Positions 6,444 to 35,057 of a stretch of DNA of 64,000 nt are shown here, piece by piece; within the stretch, counting starts at the first letter, position 1; every line of letters starts with the position of its first letter. The notes below the pieces were generated by a model that was given only the letters and a program-made list of their open reading frames with translations, searched no databases and was not told where the DNA came from. Source of the DNA: Enterobacter cloacae. Lineage in GTDB: Bacteria; Pseudomonadota; Gammaproteobacteria; Enterobacterales; Enterobacteriaceae. The position numbers were made by a program, and so were the translations under genes. The stretch covers positions 3,782,001 through 3,846,000 of the forward strand of contig AP022133.1 of assembly GCA_014169315.1 (NCBI GenBank), given 5' to 3'.

Positions 6444-6519
6444 GCCCGGATAGCTCAGTCGGTAGAGCAGGGGATTGAAAATCCCCGTGTCCTTGGTTCG
6501 ATTCCGAGTCCGGGCACCA
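6444..6519 (+). tRNA. pheV: tRNA-Phe (anticodon GAA)
   Basis: A 76-nt cloverleaf: acceptor GCCCGGA pairs with TCCGGGC, D-loop AGCTCAGTCGGTAGAGC, anticodon stem GGGGA/TCCCC around TTGAAAA with GAA at 6477-6479, T arm GTGTCC then TTGGTTCGATTCCGAG, and an encoded CCA end. It is the integration target of the downstream island. The element supplied an identical 3' end, so the gene stayed intact. Confidence 0.97.
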
Positions 6520-6524
6520 CTATT
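6471..6524 (+). repeat. attL: 54-bp direct repeat inside pheV
   Basis: It begins GGGATTGAAAATCCCC in the anticodon stem-loop and runs 5 nt past the CCA end (CACTATT). It is identical over all 54 positions to 31679-31732. Divergence starts on both sides exactly at these limits. Confidence 0.93.
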
Positions 6525-8851: not shown

Positions 8852-10075
8852 TTAACGCAATAAGTCCATATCCAGCTTTTCATGAACGGCCAGAATCGCT
8901 TCACGGGTGGCTGCAAAAATGCTGTCTGCATCACGCTCACGGAGCTTCGCCCAAACCGCTCCATCATTACCCCAGTCTCTAGGAATGCGATTTTTCCCTT
9001 GCAGATCTAAACCCCTGCTCCACCATGACCAGTATTCGCTGGATTTACCCTGCGTGTGTGGAAATATCTCTGACATGGCAGCAGCTATTTTTGCAGATTG
9101 TCCTTCAATCAGACTCACTCCCGAAATGCCAAAAAACAAACCATAATAACCTGTATATTCAAACTCCCAGCACAAAGAGTAATTACCATCCAGACTTAAT
9201 GGGATATAAAAATTAGCCCCACGTTTCGATAAATCCCCATCCGAGACTTCAATAGTAAAAGGATGATTAATGAAGCTTGCTTTTAAATCAGAGATAAACT
9301 CTTTGAATAAATCGCTGCGAACCTCATTCATTTGATTAAAAATCATAAATGCCGATTCGATAGAGTGACTATCCTTGCGGATGATCTCTGACAACTCACG
9401 ACTATTATCCATTGTGAACTCACCATTAATTGACTGGTTGATATATTTAATCAATGATTCAATAAATATCCTGACCGCACCTGCCCGAACACGCAATAAA
9501 CACTCACTCAGCCATTCGACGATTTCATGCCAGGATATCGTGAGGATATGTTGCTTCAGCACTTCAGGTGTATTGGCAGGAAGAGTCCACTCACCCGGAT
9601 CCTGATTGCATAAATAAATTAACTTCCATGGTCTTTCACATTTGTTCAGCCATAACGCATAATCCCGTAACTGATTTTCCTGATCTGCTGCCCATGGCTT
9701 ATTTTCGATAGCAATAAAACCCTCTGAAGACGTCATCAACAGGTCTATCTTTCTTCTGTTTTCAATGGTGACTTCATAATCAACCCTGACTTTATGATGG
9801 CTACCTCCGGTGGTTATAGGGCTATCGTGCCCACTCTTTTCAATGAGGGAAAGAAATCCCTTTAGAAACAGTGCTGACTGACCATGAGTTTCATCAGGAG
9901 AAAGCAAAAATCGTAGATAGCGTGAAAGGGCCAGTTCGTCATTCTTCAGCCAGTCCATAAGGCTGAAATCAGGTGCCAGCTCAGCCTGATAGCGTAATTT
10001 AGCCAGAATCGTCACTTCATTCCATCGTGCAACACTATCCAGAAGCGCTGCAGCATGCTGCTGTATGACATTCAT
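8852..10075 (-). CDS. PD-(D/E)XK nuclease superfamily protein
   Basis: A predicted DNA-cutting protein of 407 aa. The N-terminal helical part is followed by a core with KIDLLM (Asp about 111), then GFIAIENKPWAADQENQL, where Glu about 124 and Lys about 126 form the E-x-K of a PD-(D/E)XK site. The Gln/Leu helix after it is typical of the PDDEXK_4-like group. The second half (about residues 230-407) is an unassigned domain. The start at MNVIQQHAAALL follows AAGGGTAAG; the open frame continues 16 codons upstream into a repeated sequence (10111-10169). With the downstream 178-aa gene it resembles a two-gene defence cassette, but the system is not one I can name. Confidence 0.75.
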   Translation of the reverse strand: MNVIQQHAAALLDSVARWNEVTILAKLRYQAELAPDFSLMDWLKNDELALSRYLRFLLSPDETHGQSALFLKGFLSLIEKSGHDSPITTGGSHHKVRVDYEVTIENRRKIDLLMTSSEGFIAIENKPWAADQENQLRDYALWLNKCERPWKLIYLCNQDPGEWTLPANTPEVLKQHILTISWHEIVEWLSECLLRVRAGAVRIFIESLIKYINQSINGEFTMDNSRELSEIIRKDSHSIESAFMIFNQMNEVRSDLFKEFISDLKASFINHPFTIEVSDGDLSKRGANFYIPLSLDGNYSLCWEFEYTGYYGLFFGISGVSLIEGQSAKIAAAMSEIFPHTQGKSSEYWSWWSRGLDLQGKNRIPRDWGNDGAVWAKLRERDADSIFAATREAILAVHEKLDMDLLR

Positions 10076-10110
10076 TGTCTTACCCTTTTGGCAAACGATG
10101 CTCCCCACAC

Positions 10111-10169
10111 TAACGCTGTTCACGGTATGAGCAAGAGCAAACCAGAAAAGATCTGATCAGCATCAACAT
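10111..10169. repeat. Degenerate direct repeat, copy B
   Basis: About 59 bp (from TAACGCTGTTCACGGTATG to CATCAACAT) similar to 11369-11426, with one small indel and scattered substitutions. On the minus strand the two copies read the related peptides FWFALAHTVNSV and FWPALTHTVNGV. They flank the GIY-YIG gene. The 250 bp between this repeat and the GIY-YIG gene hold only a 64-codon minus frame without support. Confidence 0.55.
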
Positions 10170-12621: not shown

Positions 12622-13806
12622 ATGTCCACTCCCAAACGCTTCCGTTTTACTAATCAGCTCATTAAATCCCTGCCCCCTAACACATCAGATGCACGCAGTA
12701 CCGATGCCGAATACAGCGACACCGAGATTTCCGGCCTCAAGTGTCTGGTCAGCAGAAGAGAAGGTCGTAAAAAGTTTTTGCTACGCTACCTTTATCATGG
12801 ACGAAAACGCGCCATCGCCATTGGTCACTGGCCTGAAGTGGACGTCAATCTTGCTCGTCAGATTGCCATAGAACACAAACGTTCCCTTGCCACCGGCACT
12901 GACCCTAAGCAGGAGCGTGAAAACAAGAGAATGGAGCTGACGTTCGATGAACTCTTTAATCAGCATTATCTGCCATGGGCAAAATCCGCTAAACGCAGTT
13001 GGGGAAAGGATGTTCAGCGCTACCGCGATCATATCCGTCCCGCCATTGGTCAGAGGCTGCTGAGCGATATCACACCAGCGAGCATTCTGCGCCTTCAGCA
13101 GACGTTAAGTACTTCCCTGTCAGCGGCTACCTGTAACCGTGTCATCGTACTCATTAAAGCCGTCTTTACATGGGCCGGAAGGCAAAGCATGACCTCTGTT
13201 CATCCGGCAAGGGGGGTACAGCTACTCAGGGAGAACAACGCCCGACAGCGTTATTTTACCGAGGACGAAATTCGTCGTATTTTTCTCTCCGCCGATAACG
13301 ATACCAGCCCTGTAGCTGCCCGCTATGTCAAACTGCTGTTACTGACCGGCCTTCGTCGTGATGAGCTGCGTCTGGCTAAGTGGGAGCATGTTGACCCGGT
13401 TAAACGCACCCTGTGGCTCCCTGAAACCAAGAATGGCTATGGACGGATTGTTCACCTTAACTCACTGGCGATGGACGTAATCAGAACGCTGCCAACGCAG
13501 CGGGGAAATCCGTGGTTGTTTATTGGTAAAAAACAGGGAATGCCGCTGAGTAACCCGGTTAAAGCCTTTCAGCGTATCGTGCGTCGGGCGGGAATTTTCG
13601 ACAAGGAAGTGTGTATTCATACCTGCCGCCATTCGGTTGCCGCCCTCATCGTGTCCTACGGCGGAACACTGTATGACGTTCAGGCTCAACTGGGGCACCG
13701 CAGCAGTCAGTCTTCACAACGGTATGCGCATCTTCATCCTCAGCGCTTACAGAACACCAGTCAGTTACTGGCGGAAAGGATAACGGCTCAGCTACCGTCC
13801 TTGTGA
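12622..13806 (+). CDS. Tyrosine recombinase / P4-type integrase (int1)
   Basis: A site-specific recombinase of 394 aa that would integrate and excise the island. The N-terminal arm-binding DUF4102-like domain (about residues 10-90) contains KFLLRYLYHGRKRAIAIG. A SAM-like core-binding domain (about 98-180) is followed by the catalytic domain with Arg in LLTGLRRDELRL, HTCRH (H-x-x-R) and LGHRSSQSSQRYAHL with the nucleophilic Tyr. It has a strong AGGAGG ribosome-binding site and the same orientation as pheV, as expected for the integrase of a tRNA-Phe island, but it now lies 6.1 kb away with IS903 between them. Confidence 0.92.
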   Translation: MSTPKRFRFTNQLIKSLPPNTSDARSTDAEYSDTEISGLKCLVSRREGRKKFLLRYLYHGRKRAIAIGHWPEVDVNLARQIAIEHKRSLATGTDPKQERENKRMELTFDELFNQHYLPWAKSAKRSWGKDVQRYRDHIRPAIGQRLLSDITPASILRLQQTLSTSLSAATCNRVIVLIKAVFTWAGRQSMTSVHPARGVQLLRENNARQRYFTEDEIRRIFLSADNDTSPVAARYVKLLLLTGLRRDELRLAKWEHVDPVKRTLWLPETKNGYGRIVHLNSLAMDVIRTLPTQRGNPWLFIGKKQGMPLSNPVKAFQRIVRRAGIFDKEVCIHTCRHSVAALIVSYGGTLYDVQAQLGHRSSQSSQRYAHLHPQRLQNTSQLLAERITAQLPSL

Positions 13807-16264: not shown

Positions 16265-17677
16265 TTACCCCATCGCCCGGTTAACGACTTCGTGGTAACG
16301 CGCCGGGGAAGCGTGCAAGTAAAGCTCCGTTACTTTGATAGTGCTGTGACCCAATAAGTCTTTGACGGTGTGAATGTCGGCCCCGCTCTCAATGAGCTTT
16401 GTCGCAAAGGTATGACGCATCTCATGGATGGTGAACGGTGGAATACCCGCAGCCTCACAAAGTCGTTTTTGCAGGCGACGCGGCTCAGCAACCGGATTGT
16501 CGGTTCCCTTGCCCGGAAATACCCAGCCTTCATCACCCAGATGCTGACGCTGTTCTGTCAGAAGAACGAAAGCCTTATCACATACCGGTACACGGCGTAG
16601 TTTGCCGTTTTTGGTATGGCGAAGGGTGATAACCTTGCGGCTCCAGTCCACATCTTCAAGACGAAGGTGACGGGTTTCCCCCAGACGCAGCCCCGTCAGG
16701 GCAAGGAACATGAGAAGAGCAAGGGCTTCATGATCGGGTTTACCATTACGCCAGCGCTCACAGACGTCCATCCAGCGCTGAAGCTGGGAGTCATCCATGG
16801 CACGGCGATCTGACGTCACTTCAGGCAGCGCTTTGATATAAAGCGCCGGAGAGCGGCTGATGTATCCCATGCGTATAGCCCAGGTAAACACCGCTTTAAT
16901 GAGCGCCAGATGGCGGTTGCGGGTGGCAGGCTTGAGATCGAGATTATGCAGATAGCTCAGAATATCTGCCTCCGTCATACCTGCCAGCTTTTTGTCACCG
17001 AGAAGAGGGCGCAGGTATTTACGGATCTTAGAAAGGTCGGTGTTAGCTGAACGCTTAACGCCCGTGCTGAGTACGCTTTTCTCATACTCATCCACAAGCT
17101 CATTAAACGTCATTTTACTGTGAGTAAGAAAACGCTCACCGTAAGCCTCAACGGCGGTCTTGAGCTCCTGAATTATTTTAAAGGCATGCTCCCTTGCATC
17201 TTTAATTGAAATTTCCGGGTAGCCTCCTACGGCAACGTAGATATTCTTTCCGCGAATACTTTTGCGGACAATAAATTTAATGCGACCTGATGGATAGAAT
17301 ATTGCCTTAAGTCCGGTTAACTTCTTATCGCTGGTCTCGATTGTTTGTGCAGCTTGTACTGCACGGATTTTATATTCATCAAAAAGGGCTTTAGTAAAAA
17401 CACCTCCAGTATTTTTAGGTGCAACCCCTGGATATTCTACAACATCAGATACTCCAGAGTCGGAATACCCCTGAGCTTCCACATCTACATTGAAGGAATT
17501 TTTATGAGCAGCTGTGATGCTCTTTTCATCCAGCACTTGCGTTATTTTATTTAAAGGGTAATTAACTTTCATAATATGTACATGGTCCTCTGAAAATTCA
17601 GATGATAATGAGTAATTTAATATGTCGGCCAACAATGGGATAAGCTTATTTATTCGTGGCATCACTTTCAAGCCCAT
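16265..17677 (-). CDS. Second tyrosine recombinase (int2)
   Basis: A 470-aa integrase unrelated at close range to int1. The N-terminal 90 residues are an unusual AT-rich extension with no recognised domain, so translation may begin later (for example MKVNYPLNK, codon 36). Then come a DUF4102-like arm domain (GLKAIFYPSGRIKFIV), a core-binding domain, and a catalytic domain with Arg in ALTGLRLGETRHL, IHEMRHTFA (H-x-x-R) and LGHSTIKVTELYLH with the Tyr. It is transcribed toward int1 and in the same direction as the DUF927 gene. Two integrases 2.5 kb apart suggest one element inserted in, or fused to, another. Confidence 0.88.
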   Translation of the reverse strand: MGLKVMPRINKLIPLLADILNYSLSSEFSEDHVHIMKVNYPLNKITQVLDEKSITAAHKNSFNVDVEAQGYSDSGVSDVVEYPGVAPKNTGGVFTKALFDEYKIRAVQAAQTIETSDKKLTGLKAIFYPSGRIKFIVRKSIRGKNIYVAVGGYPEISIKDAREHAFKIIQELKTAVEAYGERFLTHSKMTFNELVDEYEKSVLSTGVKRSANTDLSKIRKYLRPLLGDKKLAGMTEADILSYLHNLDLKPATRNRHLALIKAVFTWAIRMGYISRSPALYIKALPEVTSDRRAMDDSQLQRWMDVCERWRNGKPDHEALALLMFLALTGLRLGETRHLRLEDVDWSRKVITLRHTKNGKLRRVPVCDKAFVLLTEQRQHLGDEGWVFPGKGTDNPVAEPRRLQKRLCEAAGIPPFTIHEMRHTFATKLIESGADIHTVKDLLGHSTIKVTELYLHASPARYHEVVNRAMG

Positions 17678-20769: not shown

Positions 20770-21519
20770 ATGGCTACCTACCGACACGACCCCGACCTTG
20801 AGTTTCTACGCCACTGCCATCGTGACGATCTGGATTTACTGGTTTCTGTGCTTATCTGCGATCCGAAAGACGGACTGGCACGCATCACGGAAACGCTGAC
20901 CTATGATCCTCAGTATAAAAAACACAAGCCCAACCACCCGCGCTACTGGGATGCCATTGCCGCCGAGGTTCAGACGTTTGGGGCGAACAGCTTTGCCACG
21001 CTGCTCCGCTGGGGTAAAGGGGTACTGTACCGGGAAATTCTCACCGATGCCTGCGATAAAATGAAGGTGAACTACAACAACAAATCCAGTGTTGAAACCA
21101 TTGAAATGAATCTGCTGATGAAGATCCTGGAGAAAAGTCTTGAGAAGATGACGCCTGACCAGCTAAAGACCGTGGCGGAAGAATTGCAGACAGGCTACAG
21201 CAACCCCACACCGGAGTTGCTGACCATGGCAATCCAGGCGGGGATAAAAACATCCGGGTTTGCGGCCTATCAGATGGCACTTGTTGTCACAAATGGTGTG
21301 GCGAAAGCCCTGTTAGGCAGAGGGCTGACCGTTGCAGGAAATGCCATGCTGACGCGTACCATGGGCGCTTTTGCCGGTCCCGTGGGCTGGGTGCTCAGTT
21401 CTCTCTGGCTGCTGATTGATTTAGCCGGTCCCGCATACCGGGTGACGCTACCATCCTGCATTTTTATTGCCTACATGCGCCAGAAGCATCTTTATTCACC
21501 TGAGAATACTGACGTTTAG
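20770..21519 (+). CDS. YaaW-family (UPF0174/DUF3944) protein
   Basis: 249 aa similar to E. coli YaaW from end to end: LEFLRHCHRDDLDLLVSVL, HPRYWDAIAAEVQTFGANS, LLRWGKGVLYREIL and GPAYRVTLPSCIFIA correspond to conserved YaaW segments. The N-terminal DUF3944 zinc-ribbon-like part is followed by helical regions and a weakly hydrophobic Gly/Ala segment (GLTVAGNAMLTRTMGAFAG). Function is unknown; homologues are common on enterobacterial islands beside GTPase and WYL genes. Good GAGGTGA ribosome-binding site. It shares a palindromic upstream element with the WYL gene. Confidence 0.8.
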   Translation: MATYRHDPDLEFLRHCHRDDLDLLVSVLICDPKDGLARITETLTYDPQYKKHKPNHPRYWDAIAAEVQTFGANSFATLLRWGKGVLYREILTDACDKMKVNYNNKSSVETIEMNLLMKILEKSLEKMTPDQLKTVAEELQTGYSNPTPELLTMAIQAGIKTSGFAAYQMALVVTNGVAKALLGRGLTVAGNAMLTRTMGAFAGPVGWVLSSLWLLIDLAGPAYRVTLPSCIFIAYMRQKHLYSPENTDV

Positions 21520-21621: not shown

Positions 21622-22335
21622 ATGACGCTGATAACACAAGAAAACGAACATGACAGACTGGCAACCCGCCTTTCCATCATCCTGAGCCGTTTGTTTCAGG
21701 GTGAAAAGCTGCATATCGGGACGCTGGCAGAAGAATTTGGAGTGACGACGCGAACGCTGCGACGGGATTTCAACGTCCGTCTGACCTACCTTGATATTGA
21801 ACAGAGCAACGGCGTGTATCAGCTTGCCTCACATTACTTTCGTCGCCGCACGGAACGGGATATGAAGATACTGGCGAGGTTGCTGCATCTTGACCGTCTG
21901 TTACCCGCGATGGATGCCAAACTACTGAGCCTGATGCTTGACGGGGAACGCCCCTCGCCATACAGGATTATGCTACCGGAGCCGCGCCAGAAACCCACCC
22001 TTTTCGGTGATTTCAGCAGACTGACGCTCGCCATACTTAACCAGACCCTGGTGCGTATCAGAACCGACGAAAACGTCAGCCATACCGTTCATCCCTACCG
22101 TCTGCTTTGCAGCCATGCGGAGTGGTTTCTTGCCGGATGTACGTCATCGGGCGTGTTCGTTATTTCCCTGTCCCGAATCAGGCTGGTTGAGGTATTACCG
22201 GATACAACGTTTGAGATCGATAACACACTCATTTCGCTGATTGAACAGTCTGACTTTATGGAAGCCTTACCCCACATGAACATTATTCATAAGATAATGC
22301 ATTACGGGAGTAAACAGACGAATAATCGTAATTAA
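21622..22335 (+). CDS. WYL-domain transcriptional regulator
   Basis: 237 aa. The N-terminal DeoR-type helix-turn-helix (LHIGTLAEEFGVTTRTLRRD, residues about 30-50) is followed by a WYL ligand-binding domain with HPYRLLCSHAEWFLAG (the position of the W-Y-L signature) and the Arg-rich strand VISLSRIRLVEVL. Proteins of this type repress defence and phage-island genes and respond to nucleic-acid or nucleotide signals in known cases. The gene is preceded by a palindrome also found in front of the YaaW-like gene, so the two are probably co-regulated. Confidence 0.85.
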   Translation: MTLITQENEHDRLATRLSIILSRLFQGEKLHIGTLAEEFGVTTRTLRRDFNVRLTYLDIEQSNGVYQLASHYFRRRTERDMKILARLLHLDRLLPAMDAKLLSLMLDGERPSPYRIMLPEPRQKPTLFGDFSRLTLAILNQTLVRIRTDENVSHTVHPYRLLCSHAEWFLAGCTSSGVFVISLSRIRLVEVLPDTTFEIDNTLISLIEQSDFMEALPHMNIIHKIMHYGSKQTNNRN

Positions 22336-22393
22336 AATCACAACATATTATTAGTGATGATTAAATCACATTAACATGATAAGTGAGAAAGTT

Positions 22394-22705
22394 ATGATTA
22401 TCGATAAAGAATACGCACTTGTAGATGCAACAGCAAGACTTAACACTGACCTGAGGGATTATGAATATGAAATAAACAACGCCGCCATCATAACATTTGG
22501 CAATGACCTCATTGAGGTAATCGTATATCAGTTCAGCTTTATCATCAGCATCAGGGCAGAGGGTGAAAAAATAAAGCACGGCCTTCTTGTTAACTTCGGT
22601 AAAAATATAGCAAGACAGGTTTCATCACTTTGTGCATCCGCAATGCGAGTCTACCCTAACGAAAAACACAAACCGAGCCGTCAGCTTTTCCACTGCATAA
22701 ATTAG
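22394..22705 (+). CDS. Hypothetical protein, 103 aa
   Basis: Unrecognised small protein; start MIIDKEYALVDATARL after GTGAGAAAG (an ATG six codons upstream is possible). Mixed composition, no signal peptide or strong membrane segment. It lies alone between the WYL regulator and the DUF262 gene on the same strand. Confidence 0.5.
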   Translation: MIIDKEYALVDATARLNTDLRDYEYEINNAAIITFGNDLIEVIVYQFSFIISIRAEGEKIKHGLLVNFGKNIARQVSSLCASAMRVYPNEKHKPSRQLFHCIN

Positions 22706-22778
22706 TTTGTGCAAAGACTGTACTACCGACACGCTTTAAATTAAAATAGGCCAGCTAATATAACATATGAGGTTTATG

Positions 22779-24644
22779 ATGGCTGGCCAGTATGAAAAAG
22801 CAATAACGATAAAACAAGCGATAGACTCAATTAATTTACGCCACTATCTTCTGCCTGCAATTCAGAGGAAGTTCGTCTGGAGCAGCAGGCAGATATGTCT
22901 GCTGTTTGATTCCATCATGCGAGACTACCCGATAAACTCTTTCATGATGTGGGATATCCGTAGTGCCAGTATTAAAAACGATTACAAATTCTATGAATTC
23001 CTGAAAGAATACTGTCAGCGATTTAATGAAGAAAATCCCTGCGTAGCAACAAATGCTGGATTTCATGATTTCAAGGCTGTGATTGATGGTCAGCAACGTC
23101 TCACATCATTATATATTGGATTGTGTGGAACGTATGCGTATAAACAGCCCCGGGTGTGGTGGCCTTCGGCACAGGATGATCGCATCCTGCCGCCCAGAAA
23201 GCTTTACGTCGATTTAACCGCGCCACTTAAGTCAGACGACGAACTCATGATGAAGTACAACTTCAGGTTCCTGACCGAGAAGCAATATACTGATTCACTT
23301 ACCGATAACAAACATCACTGGTTCTGCCTGCACGAAATATTAAAATACGAGCAACATGATTCTCCTGATGATATTTTATTTAACGTTTTCGTACCAGAAC
23401 TTGAAAAAAGAGATCTCATTTCCAGTGAATTTTCCAGAAAAACTCTGCTTAAACTTTATACCAAGATAAGAACTGAAAATCTTATCCACTACTTCAATGA
23501 GAGCAGTCAGGACATTGATCATGTGCTGGATGTTTTCATCCGCACGAACAGCGGGGGGACAAAACTTGAGTTCTCTGACTTACTGATGTCAATAGCGGTA
23601 GCGCACTGGCAGGGTGATTTCAGAAGAGAACTGGATGAACTGACAAAAAATATTTATCAGAATAATGAAATGGGTTTTTATATTGAAAGAGACTGGTTCT
23701 TAAAAACCAGCCTGATGCTTATTGACTCTGACGTCCGGTTCAAAGTAAAAAACTTCACTTCAGAGGAGGTCGGTAAGATACAACAACAATGGTCTGAAAT
23801 AAAATCCTGTATCAAGGAGACCTTTATTCTTATCAGGCGATTCGGCATCAATCCACAGTCTTTGATATCTAAAAATGCAGTCATTCCTGTGGTCTACTGG
23901 CTTTACAAAAAGCAAACCAGTGGACATCCATTATATACAACGATTAATCTCCTGAATAAGAACCACAATGAACGCTCAGTAATTAGCCAGTGGTTTTACA
24001 TGGTACTTCTGAAAGGGATCTTTGGAAGCCAGGCAGATGCGCTACTCACGAGTATCAGAGATGTAATGAAAAATAGTCTTTCAGATATTCACTTTCCTCT
24101 TGAGAAGATTATTGACAGATATAAAGGCTCGAATAAGGACCTCAGATTTGACGACGAATACATCGAAAGCCTTCTCAATATCAGATATGGCGAAGGTCGT
24201 TGCCGCGCACTATTGCATCTTCTGTTCCCTGAAATGAATCCGACCGAGGTGTTTCATATTGATCACCTTCACCCAAGAAATCACTTCTCAAAGAAATATC
24301 TTGAAAAATTAGATTATGTTGCGAACTCACCAGAGAACCTCAGCTTTTATGAAAACCCGGAACACTGGGACACCATACCTAATCTTCATTTACTGAATCA
24401 TTCTCAGAATATAAGTAAACAGGATACTTCCCTGAAACAATGGTTATCTCAGTCATCAAACAACTATACGCCATCAATGTTGTTAGTTTCAGATGACAAT
24501 ATTGAGTTCAGTCGCTTCCCGGAATTCTACAATGAGCGAAGAAACGCCCTGAAGCAAAGACTGCTGAATCGGGTATTTCTTATAACAAAAATAGATTCAT
24601 CACCATCCACAATGGATACGGATGAAGAAATTCTCACCGACTGA
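22779..24644 (+). CDS. DUF262/DUF1524 (GmrSD-like) modification-dependent restriction candidate
   Basis: A 621-aa single-chain protein. The N-terminal ParB-like DUF262 domain shows QRKFVWSSRQICLLFDSI and the invariant DGQQRLTSL (about residues 104-112), then VFIRTNSGGTKLEFSD. The C-terminal HNH-like DUF1524 domain shows HIDHLHPR (about residues 492-499), NLSFYEN and NLHLLNHSQNISKQD. In GmrSD the DUF262 part hydrolyses nucleotide and the DUF1524 part cuts modified phage DNA, so a type IV restriction role is likely. The start at 22779 is set by GAGG six bases upstream; two earlier ATGs space badly. It lies directly upstream of the type I hsd operon. Confidence 0.82.
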   Translation: MAGQYEKAITIKQAIDSINLRHYLLPAIQRKFVWSSRQICLLFDSIMRDYPINSFMMWDIRSASIKNDYKFYEFLKEYCQRFNEENPCVATNAGFHDFKAVIDGQQRLTSLYIGLCGTYAYKQPRVWWPSAQDDRILPPRKLYVDLTAPLKSDDELMMKYNFRFLTEKQYTDSLTDNKHHWFCLHEILKYEQHDSPDDILFNVFVPELEKRDLISSEFSRKTLLKLYTKIRTENLIHYFNESSQDIDHVLDVFIRTNSGGTKLEFSDLLMSIAVAHWQGDFRRELDELTKNIYQNNEMGFYIERDWFLKTSLMLIDSDVRFKVKNFTSEEVGKIQQQWSEIKSCIKETFILIRRFGINPQSLISKNAVIPVVYWLYKKQTSGHPLYTTINLLNKNHNERSVISQWFYMVLLKGIFGSQADALLTSIRDVMKNSLSDIHFPLEKIIDRYKGSNKDLRFDDEYIESLLNIRYGEGRCRALLHLLFPEMNPTEVFHIDHLHPRNHFSKKYLEKLDYVANSPENLSFYENPEHWDTIPNLHLLNHSQNISKQDTSLKQWLSQSSNNYTPSMLLVSDDNIEFSRFPEFYNERRNALKQRLLNRVFLITKIDSSPSTMDTDEEILTD

Positions 24645-24847: not shown

Positions 24848-26404
24848 ATGACAAGCCTTCAGCAGCGTGCAGAGCTACACCGTCAAATCTGGGCCATTGC
24901 CAATGATGTCAGAGGCTCCGTAGATGGATGGGATTTTAAACAGTATGTACTCGGTGCACTTTTCTATCGCTTCATCAGTGAGAATTTTTCCAGCTACATG
25001 GAAGCAGGGGATGAGAGCATACATTATGCAGCACTTGATGACAGCATCATTACCGGTGACATCAAAGACGATGCCATCAGGACTAAAGGCTATTTCATCT
25101 ACCCAAGCCAGCTGTTCTGCAACGTTGCCGCTAAAGCGAACACCAACGACAGGCTGAATGCTGATTTAAACAGTATCTTCGTCGCTATTGAAAGCTCTGC
25201 CTACGGCTATCCCTCTGAGGCCGACATCAAAGGCCTGTTCGCCGATTTCGATACGACCAGCAATCGACTGGGGAACACTGTCAAAGACAAAAACAGCCGT
25301 CTTTCCGCCGTTCTTAAAGGCGTTGAGGGGCTGAAGCTGGGGAATTTTAACGAGCACCAGATTGATCTGTTTGGTGATGCCTATGAGTTCCTGATTTCTA
25401 ACTATGCGGCGAATGCCGGTAAGTCTGGCGGGGAGTTCTTCACTCCTCAGCACGTCTCTAAGCTGATTGCTCAGCTTGCGATGCACGGTCAGACTCACGT
25501 CAACAAAATCTATGACCCTGCAGCTGGCTCCGGTTCACTGCTGCTTCAGGCGAAAAAACACTTTGATAACCATATCATTGAAGAAGGTTTTTATGGTCAG
25601 GAGATAAATCATACAACCTTTAACCTGGCGCGTATGAACATGTTCCTGCATAACATCAACTACGACAAATTTGATATCAGACTGGGGAATACCCTGACTG
25701 AGCCTCACTTTGGCGATGAAAAACCGTTCGATGCGATTGTCTCTAACCCTCCGTACTCGGTTAAGTGGATTGGCAGTGACGACCCGACCCTGATTAACGA
25801 TGAGCGCTTTGCTCCAGCTGGTGTACTGGCCCCGAAATCAAAAGCGGACTTTGCATTTGTCCTACATGCGCTGAACTACCTGTCTGCTAAAGGGCGTGCA
25901 GCAATAGTTTGCTTCCCCGGTATTTTTTACCGTGGCGGCGCGGAGCAGAAAATCCGTCAGTATCTGGTTGATAATAACTATGTCGAAACCGTGATTTCAC
26001 TGGCTCCGAACCTGTTCTTCGGCACCACTATTGCCGTTAACATTCTTGTGTTATCAAAACACAAAACAGATACCAATATACAGTTTATTGATGCAAGTGA
26101 GCTCTTCAAGAAAGAAACCAATAACAACATTCTGACCGATGCGCATATCGAATATATTATGCAGGTCTTCGACAGCAAGGCAGACACCGAGCATTTTGCC
26201 AAATCAATGCCCGCTAAGACGATTGCAACCAACGACTATAACCTTTCTGTCAGTAGCTACGTAGAAGCCAAAGATACGCGTGAAATCATCGATATCACCA
26301 CACTCAATGCCGACCTGAAAAACACCGTCAGTAAAATTGATTTGTTACGCAAAGATATCAATGCGATCGTGGCAGAAATCGAAAGTAGTGAGGCACAGGC
26401 ATGA
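24848..26404 (+). CDS. hsdM: Type I restriction-modification methyltransferase subunit (type IC)
   Basis: 518 aa; adenine N6-methyltransferase subunit that with HsdS forms the M2S1 methylase and with HsdR the nuclease. The N-terminal HsdM helical domain (residues about 1-140) is followed by the AdoMet motif [11 protein letters not shown] (about 222-232) and the catalytic NPPY (300-303). The C-terminal coiled helix ([17 protein letters not shown]) contacts HsdS. Size and sequence match the EcoR124I/prrI (IC) family (520 aa). The stop overlaps the hsdS start (ATGA). Confidence 0.95.
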
Positions 26405-27609
26405 GCAAGCTCAGTAATCTGGAAAAATTGCTGGATGGGGTTGAGGTTGAGTGGAGCAACCTGGGAAATCTTTGTGATATATTCACCGGAGGGGAGGCTC
26501 CACAAAAACATATCAAGGGAGATACTCCGACAAGTGATTACCAATACCCCATTTATGGCAATGGCGCTGAAATCTATGGTTATGCTGATAGCTACAGGAT
26601 TGGTCAAGATGCTGTAACCATATCCTCCATTGGTGCCAATACAGGAACCATTTATTTTAGAAAGGCATTCTTTACACCAATAATAAGGCTGAAAGTTGTA
26701 ATTCCTAAGCATAGTTGGCTTTTACCAAGATATTTATTCCACTATTTGTCATCGCAAACTATTAACAGCAAGAGTAGTAGCGTTCCAAATATGAATGCAT
26801 CTGATGTAAAAAAACTGAGCATCCCCATCCCTTGCCCTAACAATCCGGAAAAATCTCTTGCCATCCAGTCTGAAATCGTCCGGATTCTGGATAAATTTAC
26901 TGCACTTACCGCTGAGCTTACCGCTGAGCTTAACATGCGTAAAAAACAGTACAACTACTATCGAGACCAGTTGCTGAGTTTTGATAACGAAGATGTTCCA
27001 CATTTACCTATGGGGCAAAAGGATATTGGCGAGTTTATCCGGGGTGGTACTTTTCAGAAAAAAGACTTTATGGATGCAGGTGTAGGATGCATACACTATG
27101 GTCAAATCTATACGTATTACGGAACATACACAAAAAAAACAAAAACACATATTTCAGCCGCACTTGCAAAAAAATGCAAGAAGGCTCAAAAGGGAAATTT
27201 GATTATCGCAACCACCAGTGAGAATGATGAGGATGTATGTAAAGCTGTTGCATGGTTAGGCAGTGATGATATAGCAGTAAGCAGTGATGCCTGTATTTAT
27301 AAACATAATTTGAACCCTAAGTATGTCTCATATTATTTTCAAACAGAACAATTCCAAAATCAAAAAAGACAGTATATTACTGGCGCAAAAGTTCGGCGTG
27401 TAAATGCTGATAATTTATCTAAAATATTAATTCCTGTCCCTTCTATGGCGGTACAGGAACGTATAGTATCCATTCTCGATAAATTTGATACCCTCACTAA
27501 CTCCATCACCGAAGGTCTCCCGCGTGAAATCGAGTTGCGCCAGAAACAGTACGAGTACTATCGTGATTTACTGTTCAGCTTCCCGAAACCAGAAACCGCC
27601 AGCAACTAA
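26401..27609 (+). CDS. hsdS: Type I restriction-modification specificity subunit (type IC)
   Basis: 402 aa, sets the DNA target of the whole complex. Two target-recognition domains (about residues 10-155 and 205-350) are separated by central and C-terminal conserved helices ([20 protein letters not shown] and [18 protein letters not shown]). The central spacer has two TAEL repeats, as in EcoR124I. In that family, two versus three TAEL units change the spacer between the half-sites from 6 to 7 bp. The recognition sequence cannot be read from sequence. The second recognition domain is more AT-rich than the conserved parts, as expected for exchanged TRDs. Confidence 0.95.
26906..26929 (+). repeat. 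Two tandem 12-bp units in hsdS (TAEL spacer repeat)
   Basis: TTACCGCTGAGC twice in perfect tandem, encoding TAEL-TAEL. Slippage or unequal crossing-over here alters the target spacer in EcoR124-type systems. Confidence 0.9.
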
Positions 27610-27724: not shown

Positions 27725-30700
27725 ATGACACAACAGACACACACCATTGCTGAATCCAATAACTTTATCGTCCTTGATAAATACACCAAAGTTCTGGAGA
27801 CCGGTGACAGCTACCAGAGCGAATCGGACCTTGAGCGGGAGCTGATTCAGGACCTTCTTAATCAGGGGTATGAGTTTATCTCCGTTAAGTCACCGACTGC
27901 GATGCTGGCGAATGTGCGGGACCAGCTTCAGCGTCTTAATGGTGTGGTGTTTAACGAAAGTGAATGGCGGCGCTTCGCAGAGCAGTATCTGGACAGCCCC
28001 AGTGACAGCAGCCTGGACAAAACCCGTAAAATCCATATCGACTATATCTGTGATTTTACGTTTGATGATGGTCGTCTGGAAAACATCTATCTGATAGATA
28101 AAAAGAACCTGCTGCGCAATAAGGTGCAGGTCATTCAGCAGTTTGAGCAGACTGGCTCACACGCTAACCGTTATGACGTCACCATTCTGGTCAACGGCCT
28201 TCCGCTGGTGCAAATCGAACTCAAAAAGCGCGGCGTGGCGATTCGTGAAGCCTTTAACCAGATACACCGTTACAGCAAGGAAAGCTTTAACAGCGATAAC
28301 TCCCTGTTTAAATACCTGCAACTCTTCGTGATTTCCAACGGGACTGATACCCGGTACTTTGCCAGTACCACTAAGCGGGATAAAAATAGCTTTGATTTCA
28401 CCATGAACTGGGCGAAATCGGATAACACTTTGATTAAGGACCTGAAGGACTTTACCGCCACTTTCTTCCAGAAGCATACCCTGCTGAATGTCCTGTTTAA
28501 TTACAGCGTGTTTGACAGCAGCCAGACGCTGCTCGTCATGCGCCCCTATCAGATTGCCGCCACTGAGCGCATTCTCTGGAAAATCAACAGCTCTTTTAAA
28601 GCGAAGAACTGGTCAAAACCCGAAAGCGGTGGATTTATCTGGCATACCACAGGGTCAGGAAAAACCCTGACCAGTTTTAAGGCCGCACGTCTGGCAACCG
28701 AGCTGGACTTTATTGATAAAGTCTTCTTCGTGGTCGACAGGAAAGACCTCGATTACCAGACCATGAAGGAGTATCAGCGCTTCTCTCCGGACAGTGTGAA
28801 TGGTTCGGATAATACAGCTGGCCTCAGAAGAAACCTGGATAAGGACGATAACAAAATTATCGTCACAACCATTCAGAAACTCAATAACCTGATGAAAGCC
28901 GAAGCTGACCTGCCCGTCTATCAGCAGCAGGTGGTGTTTATCTTTGATGAGTGTCACCGCAGCCAGTTTGGTGAGGCCCAGAAAAACCTGAAAAAGAAAT
29001 TCAGACGCTTTTATCAGTTTGGTTTTACCGGTACGCCTATTTTCCCGGAAAATGCACTGGGGGCAGAAACCACCGCCAGCGTCTTCGGGCGTGAATTACA
29101 TTCTTACGTAATTACTGATGCGATTCGTGATGAAAAAGTGCTGAAGTTTAAGGTGGACTATAACGATGTCCGCCCACAGTTTAAGTCTCTTGAAACGGAA
29201 ACTGATGAGAAAAAACTCAGCGCGGCTGAAAACCACCAGGCCTTTCTGCACCCACTGCGTATCCAGGAAATAACGCAATACATTCTCAATAACTTCCGTC
29301 AGAAAACGCACCGAACCTTCCCGGGAGCCAAGGGCTTTAACGCCATGTTAGCAGTTAGCAGCGTGGACGCGGCGAAAGCTTATTACACGACGTTTAAAAT
29401 GCTACAGGAAGAAGCAGAGAAGAAATCTGGCAGCTATAAATGCCTTCGGGTGGCAACCATCTTCTCCTTTGCTGCAAATGAAGAGCAAAGCGCCATTGGT
29501 GATATTACTGACGAAAGCTTTGATACCAGTGCAATGAACAGCAGCGCGAAGGAATTCCTGGATTCAGCCATTGATGACTATAACAATCACTTTAAAACCA
29601 ATTTCAGCACCGACAGTAACGGTTTCCAGAACTACTACCGCAATTTAGCTCAACGAGTGAAAAATCAGGATATTGACCTTCTCATCGTGGTGGGAATGTT
29701 CTTGACTGGCTTTGATGCTCCGACGCTCAATACTCTGTTCGTTGACAAAAACCTGCGTTATCACGGTCTGATGCAGGCATTCTCACGCACCAACCGTATC
29801 TATGATGCAACCAAAACCTTCGGCAATATCGTGACTTTCAGGGACCTGGAGCGTCCGACCATTGATGCCATCACACTTTTTGGCGACAAAAACACCAAGA
29901 ATGTGGTGCTGGAAAAAAGCTACGAAGAGTACATGCAGGGCTTTACCGATGCGGCAACCGGTGAGGCTAAACGAGGTTTTATGGCTGTTGTTTCGGAGCT
30001 GGAGCAGCGCTTCCCTGACCCTGCCAGTATCGACAGTGAAAAAGAGAAAAAAGCCTTCGTCAAACTGTTTGGTGAATATCTGCGGGCAGAAAACATCCTG
30101 CAAAACTACGATGAATTTGCCACGCTGAAAGCCCTGCAGAAGGTTGATATTAGTGACCCGGAAGCGGTAGAAACCTTTAAAGCAGAGCACTACGTGGATG
30201 ATGAAAAATTTGCTGAATTACAAACCATTCGCCTCCCTGCCGAACGTAAAGTTCAGGACTACCGCTCAGCTTACAATGATATCCGGGACTGGCAGCGACG
30301 TGAAAAAGCAGCAAACGACAGGGATACATCAACCACGGACTGGGATGACGTGGTGTTTGAAATTGACCTGCTCAAGTCGCAAGAGATTAACCTGGACTAC
30401 ATTCTGGGCCTGATTTTCGACCATAACAGAGAGAAAAAAGGTAAAGAAGCCCTGACAGAAGAGGTCAGACGCTTAATCCGTTCAAGTCTGGGCAACCGTG
30501 CCAAAGAAGGTCTGATTGTTGACTTTATTCAGCAAACTAACCTTGATGACATGCCAGACAAGGCCAGTATCATTGATGCATTCTTTACCTATGCTCAGCG
30601 TGAACAGCAGCGGGAAGCGGAAGCGTTGATTAAGGAAGAAAACCTCAATGAAGAGGCTGCAAGGCGCTATATCCGCACATCACTAAAACGGGAGTATGCC

Positions 30701-30841
30701 ACCGAAAATGGGACGGAGCTAAATGAGACGCTACCAAAGCTCAGTCCGCTGAATCCTCAGTACAAAACGAAAAAGCAGACTGTATTCCAGAAAATTGGGG
30801 CATTTATCGAAAAATTTAAAGGGGTTGGAGGACACCTCTAG
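27725..30841 (+). CDS. hsdR: Type I restriction-modification endonuclease/translocase subunit (type IC)
   Basis: 1038 aa, identical in length to EcoR124I HsdR and nearly collinear with it. The N-terminal PD-(D/E)XK nuclease has Asp in RYDVTILV (about 151) and Glu-x-Lys in VQIELKKRG (about 165-167). SF2 helicase motifs: [11 protein letters not shown] (Walker A, about 308-314), DECHRSQFG (about 408), FTGTPIF and [12 protein letters not shown] (motif VI). The C-terminal helical domain ends [10 protein letters not shown]. It pumps and cuts unmodified DNA. The 115-bp gap after hsdS contains no prrC anticodon-nuclease gene, unlike EcoprrI. All catalytic residues are present. Confidence 0.96.
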
Positions 30842-31062
30842 ATGTCAGATAAAAGAACAATGCGCTACCGTAATTTATAGGTAAGATTGTATCTTTTCAC
30901 CTGCATCAGACCTGTTATGATCGATGAGGCGCTGGTTAATGTTAATGCTAACTGGATGAGTTTTAAACGCTGATTCAGACAATTAGCGTCCAGAACTTAC
31001 AGAAACCAGTGCTTGATTTTGGATGGTAAAGTGCTGAACGGACGTATCACAGGAGAATGCTT

Positions 31063-31401
31063 ATGAGCGTAACTATAAAAGACGATCGACTCAGGACTAT
31101 CGCGACCTTTGATGGCAAGACCTTGAAAGATGATCGACTGAGGACCATCGCGACGTTTGATGGTAAAGCCCTGAAAGACGACCGACTCCGTACCATCGCT
31201 ACCTTTGACGGTAAAACCCTGAAAGACGACCGACTCCGCACCATCGCTACCTTTGATGGCAAGACCCTGAAAGACGATCGACTCCGCACCATCGCAACAT
31301 TTGATGGTAAAACACTTAAAGACGATCGACTCAGAACCATCGCGACAGTTAATGGTAATGTCAGTATTGTTGTTTTGGCGTTTGCTGCTCGGCTATTTTA
31401 G
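31063..31401 (+). CDS. Repeat peptide: six 16-residue units plus hydrophobic tail, unknown function
   Basis: A 112-aa protein that I do not recognise. After MSVTI come five copies of a 16-residue unit (KDDRLRTIATFDGKTL; the second has GKAL) and a sixth, divergent one (KDDRLRTIATVNGNVS), then a hydrophobic tail IVVLAFAARLF. The units are joined without linkers. The DNA copies differ at many third positions while the peptide is kept, which implies selection on the protein. An AGGAG site 7 nt before 31063 sets the start. The tail could enter a membrane or be a recognition end; the repeats look like charged beta-strand/turn units. It stands 221 bp after hsdR, and is the last gene before attR. Confidence 0.8.
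   Translation: MSVTIKDDRLRTIATFDGKTLKDDRLRTIATFDGKALKDDRLRTIATFDGKTLKDDRLRTIATFDGKTLKDDRLRTIATFDGKTLKDDRLRTIATVNGNVSIVVLAFAARLF
31078..31365 (+). repeat. Six tandem 48-bp coding repeats
   Basis: Units begin at 31078, 31126, 31174, 31222, 31270 and 31318, each AAA-GAY-GAY-CGACT... Length 48 keeps the frame. Units 3 and 4 are the most similar; unit 6 is diverged. There are no spacers, so it is not a CRISPR array. The 277 bp from 31402 to attR show no feature. Confidence 0.95.
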
Positions 31402-31678: not shown

Positions 31679-31732
31679 GGGATTGAAAATCCCCGTGTCC
31701 TTGGTTCGATTCCGAGTCCGGGCACCACTATT
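31679..31732 (+). repeat. attR: 54-bp copy of the pheV 3' end
   Basis: Identical to 6471-6524. It lacks the 5' half of the tRNA (preceded by CTTTTAAA), so it is not a functional tRNA gene. It marks the right end of the island. Confidence 0.93.
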
Positions 31733-32470: not shown

Positions 32471-32757
32471 AGGTATGCTACAGCGAAGGAAAATCAACGG
32501 CAAGGAGATTTATCGGGATCGTTTTTCTATTTGCGAAGCAGTACGCAAAACCCATTACATAAAAACTATGAATGTATCCCCCCTACAAAGCCGATTAAAA
32601 AATGAACTTTATTCTTTAAATATAAGATGTTAAGATTTTTTGCAAGAACTGAGCAATTTTTGTTTTAGATAGTCACAAGATGCAGTTCGATTGGGTCCAT
32701 TGCTTTACTACTTGAAATTTATAAATAAATACAGAGTGAATGCGGAGAAATGAAAAT

Positions 32758-34629
32758 ATGGAGTATTTTTTAGACACCCCAGTTAATATTGTAGGTAATA
32801 ATAAACTTCGTTCCCCTCAAATTGAGGCATATATTAAGATTGTAGACTATTTTTCTTCAAATGATAATGGCGAAGCTTTAGTTGTACTACCAACAGGAAC
32901 AGGTAAAAGTGGACTGGTGTCGATAGCTCCATTTGGCATTTGCAAAGGCCGAGTTTTAATAGTTACTCCCGGCTTGGTTACTAAGAAAAGTATTATCAAA
33001 ACTCAAGAAGTATTAAGCGATAATTTTTGGGTTAATTTTGATGTAATATTTAACCCTAGCGATCTGCCATCACTTTGTGAATATGAAAATGACATAACAG
33101 AGGAAAATTTATATAGCAGCAACATCGTTATATCTAACATCCACAAGTTAACCTCATCAAGAAAAACTAGTTTAACAAACCGTGTTCCTCCAGACTTTTT
33201 TGATATGGTGATCATAGATGAAGCTCACCATGCACCAGCACAAAGCTGGAAAGAGTTATTGGCATATTTCTCAAAGGCAAAAAAATTACACGTAACCGGA
33301 ACTCCGTTCCGTGGTGATAACCAAGAGTTACCCGGAGAACTAATTCACGAAACTCCACTTTCTGAGGTTATGCGTGACAGGTATGTAAAATGGCTTAGAA
33401 AGGAAACTGTAAATGCCAGCCAACTATATTTCACAATGCCTCACGCTCCCGGTGAAAAATTTACCCGTGAACAGGTTCTCGCTCTAAAAGATAAAGAATG
33501 GATAGAAAAAAGTGTAGCGCTATCAAAAGATTGTTCAATTGAAGTTATAAACCATAGTATCAGCAAGCTAGCAGAATTAAATGATGCTTCAAAAAACATT
33601 CCTCATAAGATCTTAGCTGTTGGTTGTAGTATATCTCATGCAGAAGATATAAAGAAATGGTATGAAGAAAACGGCCTTAAAAGCATAATTGTTCATAGCA
33701 ATATGGAATATCAAGAAATAGAAAAAGCATTTAAGGATATTGATAACCATTTATGCCAAGTTGTAATCTCAGTGAATATGCTTATGGAAGGTTATGACCA
33801 TAGGTATTTAACAATTCTAGCTTTGTTTAGGCCATACAGAAGTATAAATGCTTTCGCACAAATAGTCGGACGAGTTTTACGCGCGATTCCCGAAGAAGAA
33901 ATAGAAGCTTTCGAAGTAGATAATAATGCTCTTATCATTTATCACCAAGACATTGGCCTCGATGCTATGTGGTCCTCTTTCCAAAAAGAGGTTGATCGAG
34001 GAACCCAGCAGCGAATTAAAGACTATAATTTTTCTGATTACGAATACGAAGAAAAAGATAGATCTTTAGCTGGTGTATTCATTGATAACAGTTTTATAAG
34101 TGATCAAGATTCTTATCTAAAAGATATTGATTTCAATGAACTTTTCGAGCAAAAAAGAGCCGAGATTGAAGCTCGTGCGAACCAAAAAATTGATAAGTTA
34201 AGAGATAATGTTACTGATGGCGAGTTTGATGAAGACGATCTGGCGCTGATTAAAGCACAAATGATCGCAAAAGAAACTCGTAAAGTCTCAAATGACGATA
34301 TTGACCCTAACCTCATATCCAAGAGACCGGAGTTGTATCGTAAAAGGATGCGTGAAACATTAACAAAACGTTCTCGTGATGAAGCAACAAATATTCTAAG
34401 CGACTTAAAATTAGATCCAAAGGGAACTGAGTTGACAAAAATTCTGTCAAGACACATTAGAACCTTAAGGACAGATACAACCAACGATGGTACACTTGTG
34501 ATCTATATAAATGCTAAATTGCATAGTCGATTTGGCCCTGTAAATGAAAGGGATAATGATGCTTTAACGATGTCTGTTAATTATCTCCCTAGTATATTCA
34601 AAGAGTTAAGGAGCATGTTGTCATGCTAA
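32758..34629 (+). CDS. SF2 DEAD/DEAH-box helicase, candidate defence gene
   Basis: 623 aa from MEYFLDTPVNIVGN, set by GGAGA upstream (an ATG at 32740 would add six residues). Helicase motifs: LRSPQIEAY (Q-like), LPTGTGKSG (about 45-52), DEAHHAP (about 154-160), HVTGTPFRGD (motif III), ISVNMLMEGYD (motif V) and QIVGRVLRAI (motif VI). A charged C-terminal 220-residue region follows (FEQKRAEIEARANQKIDKL). Strikingly AT-rich against its neighbours. It overlaps the next small gene by 7 nt, making a tight two-gene unit with its own terminator. No nuclease domain is evident. It resembles restriction-type helicases but not one I can name. Confidence 0.82.
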   Translation: MEYFLDTPVNIVGNNKLRSPQIEAYIKIVDYFSSNDNGEALVVLPTGTGKSGLVSIAPFGICKGRVLIVTPGLVTKKSIIKTQEVLSDNFWVNFDVIFNPSDLPSLCEYENDITEENLYSSNIVISNIHKLTSSRKTSLTNRVPPDFFDMVIIDEAHHAPAQSWKELLAYFSKAKKLHVTGTPFRGDNQELPGELIHETPLSEVMRDRYVKWLRKETVNASQLYFTMPHAPGEKFTREQVLALKDKEWIEKSVALSKDCSIEVINHSISKLAELNDASKNIPHKILAVGCSISHAEDIKKWYEENGLKSIIVHSNMEYQEIEKAFKDIDNHLCQVVISVNMLMEGYDHRYLTILALFRPYRSINAFAQIVGRVLRAIPEEEIEAFEVDNNALIIYHQDIGLDAMWSSFQKEVDRGTQQRIKDYNFSDYEYEEKDRSLAGVFIDNSFISDQDSYLKDIDFNELFEQKRAEIEARANQKIDKLRDNVTDGEFDEDDLALIKAQMIAKETRKVSNDDIDPNLISKRPELYRKRMRETLTKRSRDEATNILSDLKLDPKGTELTKILSRHIRTLRTDTTNDGTLVIYINAKLHSRFGPVNERDNDALTMSVNYLPSIFKELRSMLSC

Positions 34630-35057
34630 GCACTAAAAGTGTGAATCAGCTCATCGACAAAATCATTTCTGTACACCTTTCAAAAGGTGTGCAGCCTCAT
34701 GAACTTGCAGAGGCTGCATTTAGTCCAAACTATGACGAAATTTCCATTAAGAAAATTCGAGGTGGTCTTAAAGTCTATGTCTCTTTCTTCGAGGATGAAG
34801 ATGGGCGAAGAACTAATCACACGATGCTGTATACATACAATTCGAAAAAAATATTACAGCGCGTAGAGCAAAAAGTTAATAACGGTAATTTCAAAATTCA
34901 ATGGGATAGAACCGAAAATTTATCTCATCTTATTAACGAACTTTCATTTAAATTATCTCGTGATTATACGCTTGATTTTATTAATACCTTGATGTCTACC
35001 CTTCCGGTTGAACTCAGGAAAAAATGCCTCGATAAATCAGCCATTTTCACAAAATAA
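34623..35057 (+). CDS. Small partner protein of the SF2 helicase
   Basis: 144 aa, start MLSTKSVNQLIDKIIS after AAGGAG, overlapping the helicase stop by 7 nt. Features: an alpha-helical N-terminus, a beta segment (KKIRGGLKVYVSFFEDEDG), and a helical C-terminus (LINELSFKLSRDYTLDF). No catalytic motif or membrane segment seen. The coupling and matched low GC argue that it works with the helicase and was transferred with it. Confidence 0.75.
   Translation: MLSTKSVNQLIDKIISVHLSKGVQPHELAEAAFSPNYDEISIKKIRGGLKVYVSFFEDEDGRRTNHTMLYTYNSKKILQRVEQKVNNGNFKIQWDRTENLSHLINELSFKLSRDYTLDFINTLMSTLPVELRKKCLDKSAIFTK

What the first reader, a model, noticed from the sequence alone, without database searches (positions are those of the whole stretch)
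31063..31401. Undescribed gene built from six 48-bp repeats at the island end, next to hsdR
Nearly the whole 112-aa product is a 16-residue unit repeated six times, with a short hydrophobic tail. Units differ mostly by synonymous changes, so the peptide is under selection. The gene has a good ribosome-binding site, follows a type IC R-M operon, and is the last gene before attR. I know no family with this design. It could be a repeat-peptide toxin, an R-M modulator in the position that PrrC-like add-ons occupy in related loci, or a scaffold whose copy number varies.
Basis: partly seen in the sequence, partly recalled or inferred. Interest (0 to 1): 0.88.

Follow-up and report, generated by a model that had tools for sequence, protein, structure and literature searches.

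The report
Six-petal beta-flower gene in defence cassettes
A small bacterial gene made of one 16-residue hairpin repeated six times encodes a symmetric barrel of a recently named protein family, and it travels with anti-phage gene cassettes, which hints at an unrecognised accessory of bacterial immunity whose petal number varies between strains.

Summary
In detail: 31063-31401 encodes 112 aa. A 5-residue lead is followed by five full 16-residue units, a sixth unit with a divergent second half, and a hydrophobic tail. Units 1-5 need at least 18 base changes but only 1 amino-acid change, against about 13 expected by chance, so the peptide is selected. "No known family" is wrong. The protein passes Pfam's cut-off for PF21785 (Bflower_2), RefSeq names 48 of 50 E. 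coli copies "5-fold beta-flower protein", and the model has 12 strands plus a C-terminal helix, i.e. six petals. New here: (i) it ends a conserved mobile cassette, WYL-hyp-DUF262-hsdM-S-R-flower, headed by JukA where the stretch reaches that far; (ii) divergent relatives sit in the retron cassette of 27 of 28 close type V (Se72-like) retron plasmids, and in none of 33 listed backbone-only relatives; (iii) unit number varies from 2 to 7, usually 6. Best reading: an accessory of mobile anti-phage cassettes that closes a ring by pairing terminal half units. Its biochemical action, perhaps lipid binding, is inferred. New variant of a known kind.

The parts
31063..31401 (+). beta-flower gene, 112 aa plus stop
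   Evidence: RefSeq name of E. coli orthologues
31051..31055 (+). Shine-Dalgarno AGGAG, 7 nt before the ATG
   Evidence: read in the sequence
31063..31077 (+). N-terminal lead MSVTI; together with the KDD of unit 1 it resembles the second half of a unit (GKTLKDD) and is predicted as strand E3-6, proposed to pair with the last unit and close the ring
   Evidence: the pairing is inferred
31078..31317 (+). five full 48-bp units (KDDRLRTIATFDGKTL), i.e. five FDG-tipped hairpins
31318..31365 (+). sixth unit, second half diverged (VNGNVS)
31360..31395 (+). predicted C-terminal hydrophobic helix, residues 100-111
   Evidence: pLDDT of the last two blocks 73 and 66
30842..31062 (+). 221-bp spacer between hsdR and the flower gene, 89-100% identical in the loci that matched it; only a weak promoter-like site (30894-30921), no more than in shuffles
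27725..30841 (+). hsdR, EcoR124 type
26401..27609 (+). hsdS (the variable gene of the cassette)
24848..26404 (+). hsdM
22767..24644 (+). DUF262 / GmrSD_N protein (PADLOC HEC-05)
22376..22705 (+). 109-aa hypothetical protein conserved in the cassette
21622..22335 (+). WYL/HTH regulator
20770..21519 (+). JukA homologue
   Evidence: E 3.5e-72
31679..31732 (.). attR: 54-bp copy of the tRNA-Phe end
6471..6524 (.). attL within and just past tRNA-Phe (6444-6519)

Best explanation
The gene encodes a beta-flower protein (Pfam PF21785; Tubby-like clan), read as cytosolic because it starts with the repeat and shows no evident signal sequence. Each 16-residue unit folds as one beta-hairpin petal with an FDG tip. 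The N-terminal lead is half a unit and the last unit supplies the other half, so the two ends pair and close a ring of six petals (12 strands) with the hydrophobic C-terminal helix in its channel. SHOWN: the repeat, purifying selection, family membership by score, conserved position at the end of a mobile defence cassette, presence in a second kind of defence cassette (type V retron plasmids), and variation of unit number. PREDICTED: strands and helix. INFERRED: the half-unit closure; that the protein is an accessory of these anti-phage cassettes; and that it acts at the inner membrane face by binding anionic lipid with its basic petals (pI 10.1) and hydrophobic helix, as a sensor, tether or effector of infection. 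My own split: fold about 0.9; accessory of anti-phage cassettes about 0.45; lipid or membrane action about 0.25.
Confidence: 0.45

Rival explanations
1. Passenger: a selfish or host-benefit cargo gene of mobile elements with a role unrelated to phage defence (for example envelope or plasmid upkeep), found beside defence genes only because islands and small plasmids collect both.
For: It lies at the edge of the island and other cargo can stand in its place (L053). A relative in Succinatimonas is not evidently beside defence genes. On Klebsiella 4773-bp plasmids it sits near a radical SAM gene that is below the viperin cut-off and scores somewhat higher with peptide-maturase models, none above cut-off.
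Against: In the plasmids it lies in the exchanged part with the retron rather than in the shared backbone, in two backbones; in chromosomes it keeps its place after hsdR across genera.
Confidence: 0.35
2. Modulator of the type I R-M enzyme (anti-restriction or assembly factor) that protects the host when the mobile cassette enters or when hsdS changes.
Against: Relatives live on small plasmids beside retrons, with no type I R-M gene annotated. The protein is basic (pI 10.1), unlike the acidic DNA mimics of the ArdA kind (recalled). A closely related hsdMSR locus does without it.
Confidence: 0.1
3. On the plasmids the gene works mainly as RNA, as part of the retron's template (a hairpin-containing ORF proposed as an alternative msr of Se72).
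For: The review PMC6868368 (passages and section 8 read) reports such an ORF; in L017 a 22-nt arm inside the flower gene is 77% complementary to a site downstream of the gene, before the RT.
Against: Whether that ORF is the flower was not verified (the original papers are not held). The window's gene has no retron beside it and still conserves the peptide. Two-unit plasmid gene against window: pN/pS 0.16.
Confidence: 0.07
4. A peptide toxin or membrane-disrupting effector: the C-terminal helix leaves the barrel on a signal and inserts into the membrane (abortive infection).
For: Hydrophobic helix with lower confidence than the barrel in both models; cassette context.
Against: No partner antitoxin recognised; no toxicity data; other beta-flowers also enclose such a helix.
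Confidence: 0.12

Closest known systems
Beta-flower family PF21785 (Bflower_2, '5-fold'), clan CL0395; Durairaj et al. 2023 (PMC10584680; passages seen)
   Same: Pfam score above cut-off; short antiparallel strands in hairpin petals; C-terminal hydrophobic helix; RefSeq uses this name for 48 of 50 E. coli orthologues
   Different: Model has 12 strands, i.e. six petals rather than five; units almost identical; unit number varies between strains; located in anti-phage cassettes, which the passages seen do not mention
Tubby C-terminal-like fold (PDB 1zxu, in the paper's words a putative phospholipid scramblase)
   Different: 8% identity; the paper reports a circular permutation and shorter strands and loops; lipid binding not shown here
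Type V (Se72) retron cassettes on ColE1-like plasmids
   Same: A 54%-identical relative lies about 570 bp upstream of the RT and cold-shock effector genes, in the same exchanged block
   Different: No retron was seen beside the window's gene; two more distant type V retron plasmids read lack the gene
PrrC-type additions to type IC R-M loci (recalled)
   Same: Extra gene tied to an EcoR124-family locus
   Different: Lies after hsdR, not between hsdS and hsdR; no nuclease or ATPase domain found

Membership tests
Beta-flower (PF21785) | Score above Pfam's curated cut-off | tested here: met
   43.5 bits against 38, one stretch 4-102. The repeat also lifts an unrelated family, Cac1_C, over its cut-off, without a passing stretch
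Beta-flower (PF21785) | Shallow barrel of 8, 10 or 12 short antiparallel strands in hairpin petals | tested here: met
   12 strands in the AlphaFold2 model, pLDDT 84.5; a prediction, coordinates not inspected
Beta-flower (PF21785) | C-terminal hydrophobic helix enclosed by the barrel (many members) | tested here: inconclusive
   Helix 100-111 predicted; enclosure not seen directly
Beta-flower (PF21785) | [DNEQ]XXG at the hairpin tip (called semiconserved in the paper, so not strictly defining) | tested here: inconclusive
   Units read T-F-D-G, so the first position is not met in the window; distant members with the same Pfam label read E-F-D-G
Beta-flower, five-fold subtype | Five petals, ten strands | tested here: not met
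   Twelve strands predicted; so a beta-flower, but not of the five-petal subtype
Tubby C-terminal domain | Same fold with central helix | tested here: inconclusive
Tubby C-terminal domain | Phosphoinositide binding or lipid scrambling | not testable with these tools
   needs a binding assay
Type I R-M core subunit | HsdR, HsdM or HsdS domain | tested here: not met
   No such Pfam or PADLOC match for P0001; Helicase_C at 19.5 is below its cut-off of 23.5
Known anti-phage system component | Match to a PADLOC model | tested here: not met
   0 families at E up to 0.01; PADLOC-DB is of 2023

The most novel reading that the evidence does not exclude
Beta-flowers of this kind are an unrecognised accessory of mobile anti-phage cassettes, and the unit count sets the petal count. 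Because each chain starts and ends with half a petal, 4 to 6 units close alone, while 2- and 3-unit chains close by swapping half petals as trimers and dimers. Nature thus offers one chromosomal locus with 3, 5, 6 and perhaps 7 near-identical units, and plasmid relatives with 2, 4, 5 and 6, from which the emergence of closed symmetric barrels can be tested.
Probability: 0.27. Interest if true: 0.8.

Novelty: new variant of a known kind. Interest (0 to 1): 0.52.

Why it matters
Beta-flowers have a predicted fold but, in the papers seen, no known function. A consistent place in two kinds of anti-phage cassette gives the family a testable biological setting. The near-perfect units and the natural 2-to-7 unit series make it a clean case for how a symmetric closed fold arises from a single repeated hairpin.

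Tried and rejected
No-known-family reading: rejected by Pfam and RefSeq. PrrC analogue: position differs. Anti-restriction DNA mimic: protein is basic. Viperin beside the Klebsiella plasmid copy: PADLOC gave pVip at 89 bits, but NCBIfam scores viperin 73.5 against a cut-off of 180, with peptide-maturase and other radical SAM families higher, none above cut-off; the best PDB sequence match is a protein named only 'Radical SAM', viperins lower; dropped. Repeat as a DNA or RNA element in the window: no inverted repeat found at 10 bases or more and no Rfam hit near its gathering score (21.8 against 55). Chance: rejected.

Papers: for function or defence links of beta-flowers I searched (listings; 20 of 22 listed). 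Durairaj et al. (passages) is the only one on the family that I opened; the other three hits were seen in the listing only. PMC10121019 on E. coli defence islands: passages seen; 'pheV' and 'tRNA-Phe' do not occur in its main text, supplements not seen.

Full report
What is there. The ORF at 31063-31401 is real: 112 aa, a 5-residue lead, five full 16-residue units, a sixth unit whose second half differs, and a hydrophobic tail. AGGAG stands 7 nt before the ATG. Upstream, 221 bp away, is an EcoR124-type hsdR; downstream a 54-bp exact copy of the tRNA-Phe end closes the island.

Selection. Among units 1-5 at least 18 base changes are needed, 15 at third positions, and one changes the peptide; random placement gives 13.1 +/- 1.9 amino-acid changes and never as few as one in 20,000 draws. 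Over 12 distinct six-unit haplotypes of the loci then held, the window's among them, orthologue pN/pS is 0.096; units at the same position in different genes are 95.9% identical in DNA, units at different positions 79.7%. The units are therefore old and stay in order, not freshly copied.

Family. Pfam PF21785 (Bflower_2) matches at 43.5 bits, cut-off 38. One unrelated family, Cac1_C, also passes its cut-off on the whole protein (32.1 against 24.3) but with no passing stretch, a repeat effect. RefSeq of the 50 E. coli copies '5-fold beta-flower protein'. The family was defined by Durairaj et al. [quoted passage not shown] no function was tested in the passages seen. The protein search listed 54 proteins at E up to 1 among 7997 scored candidates; the last 22 (P0034-P0055, 26-39% identity, E above 1e-3) are mostly 95-aa proteins labelled PF21785, one named as from a spirochaete.

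Unit number. In E. coli, 48 of 50 genomes with the gene match the six-unit query in one piece; ET220 has 5 units and ES1 has 3. A Mixta draft has 7. Six E. coli-type plasmid relatives read have 4 (L037), 5 (L039, L040) or 6 (L017, L038, L042). A Klebsiella retron plasmid (L018) has 2 units, differing from the window at pS 0.64 but pN 0.10, so the short form has been kept by selection. On the 4773-bp Klebsiella plasmid (L016) the first unit is out of frame with the rest and an open frame of 5 units remains. The known 4-, 5- and 6-fold flowers make 4-6 units plausible single rings; 2 and 3 would need oligomers. That is a hypothesis.

Chromosomal context. In 48 of 50 E. coli carriers one match spans the hsdR end and the flower; in the other two only the last 8 bases of hsdR are in the match. 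In the ten E. coli loci read the gene follows hsdR or its remnant; six of them (L028-L031, L033, L035) show the whole order HTH regulator-hypothetical-DUF262-hsdM-S-R-flower, and the other four are cut by IS elements or by the end of the stretch. None of the ten stretches reaches the place of JukA. Of 12 other loci tested with tblastn, ten (L020-L023, L060-L065) have hsdM, hsdS, hsdR and flower in order; judged by equal contig lengths these are six distinct places (L060, L063, L064 and L065 repeat L021, L023, L022 and L020). The remaining two (L024, cut at its contig start, and L025) show only the flower. Where the stretch reaches far enough (L020/L065, L021, L023/L063), the block begins with JukA, WYL and the 109-aa protein. 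HsdS is 35-41% identical to the window's in five of the six places and 99.5% in the sixth, while the flower is 99-100%. Against tight dependence: hsdR matches occur in 1300 E. coli genomes, and in 85 records the best match, whatever its length, is at 95% identity or more, but only 50 genomes have the flower; in L053 the place after a 96.8%-identical hsdR holds a 394-aa protein and a zinc-finger-like protein instead.

Plasmid context. tblastn finds 33 plasmid records with a relative. Twenty are listed there; the 13 further records listed bring the union to 33 with the same genus counts, so I take them as the rest. Type V retron RT matches 38 plasmid records at E up to 1e-30; the 28 closest (H258-H285) include 27 of those 33, the exception being a plasmid whose RT gene is cut by IS26 (L056). 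The 10 more distant ones are not among the 33; two of them were read and scanned without finding the motif (L054, L055). The other six flower plasmids are five Klebsiella plasmids of 4773 bp with a radical SAM gene (one read, L016) and one IncF plasmid with a truncated copy. L016 and L018 share a backbone too, and in both the flower lies in the exchanged part. So the flower travels with the retron cassette, in two plasmid lineages whose RTs are about 84% identical. These are few lineages, not 27 events. A review's reference list cites a 2001 J. Bacteriol. paper whose title ends 'influences phage resistance' as the source for plasmid-borne Se72 (passages seen; the paper itself is not held); whether that plasmid carries the flower was not checked.

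How it most likely works. An accessory of mobile anti-phage cassettes, a basic (pI 10.1) six-petal ring with a greasy helix in its channel. By analogy with Tubby-like proteins, membrane lipid binding is the most likely activity, as a sensor, tether or effector of infection. Fold and linkage are well supported; action is inference. The main rival is an unrelated cargo gene.

Verdict. Not a new family, and not shown to be a toxin or an R-M modulator. It is a new variant of the beta-flower: near-perfect repeats, variable petal number and a consistent place in two kinds of anti-phage cassette, which I found in no paper searched.

Noticed in passing
window 20770-21519: JukA homologue (PADLOC E 3.5e-72) heads the conserved cassette; no JukB was looked for.
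   Followed up: partly
window 8852-10123: PD-(D/E)XK nuclease with PADLOC PDC-S26 match inside the same island.
   Followed up: no
window 12622-13806 and 16265-17677: Two tyrosine integrases in one island, which may mean two stacked elements.
   Followed up: no
window 32740-35057: Just past attR: a 629-aa helicase-like protein with weak restriction-enzyme hits, followed by an overlapping 144-aa gene without Pfam match.
   Followed up: no
L053 8142-10096: At the flower's place after hsdR: a 394-aa protein without Pfam, PADLOC or NCBIfam match and a 181-aa zinc-finger-like protein (the second was not run against NCBIfam).
   Followed up: partly
L032 4378-5697: AAA ATPase gene between hsdS and hsdR in E. 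coli 21AR0133, with the flower still after hsdR.
   Followed up: no
L016 2535-3425: Radical SAM gene near the flower on 4773-bp Klebsiella plasmids scores higher with some peptide-maturase models than with viperin, all below cut-off; a modified repeat peptide cannot be excluded there.
   Followed up: partly
L017 3263-3284 and 3732-3753: A 22-nt arm inside the plasmid flower gene is 77% complementary to a site before the retron RT.
   Followed up: no
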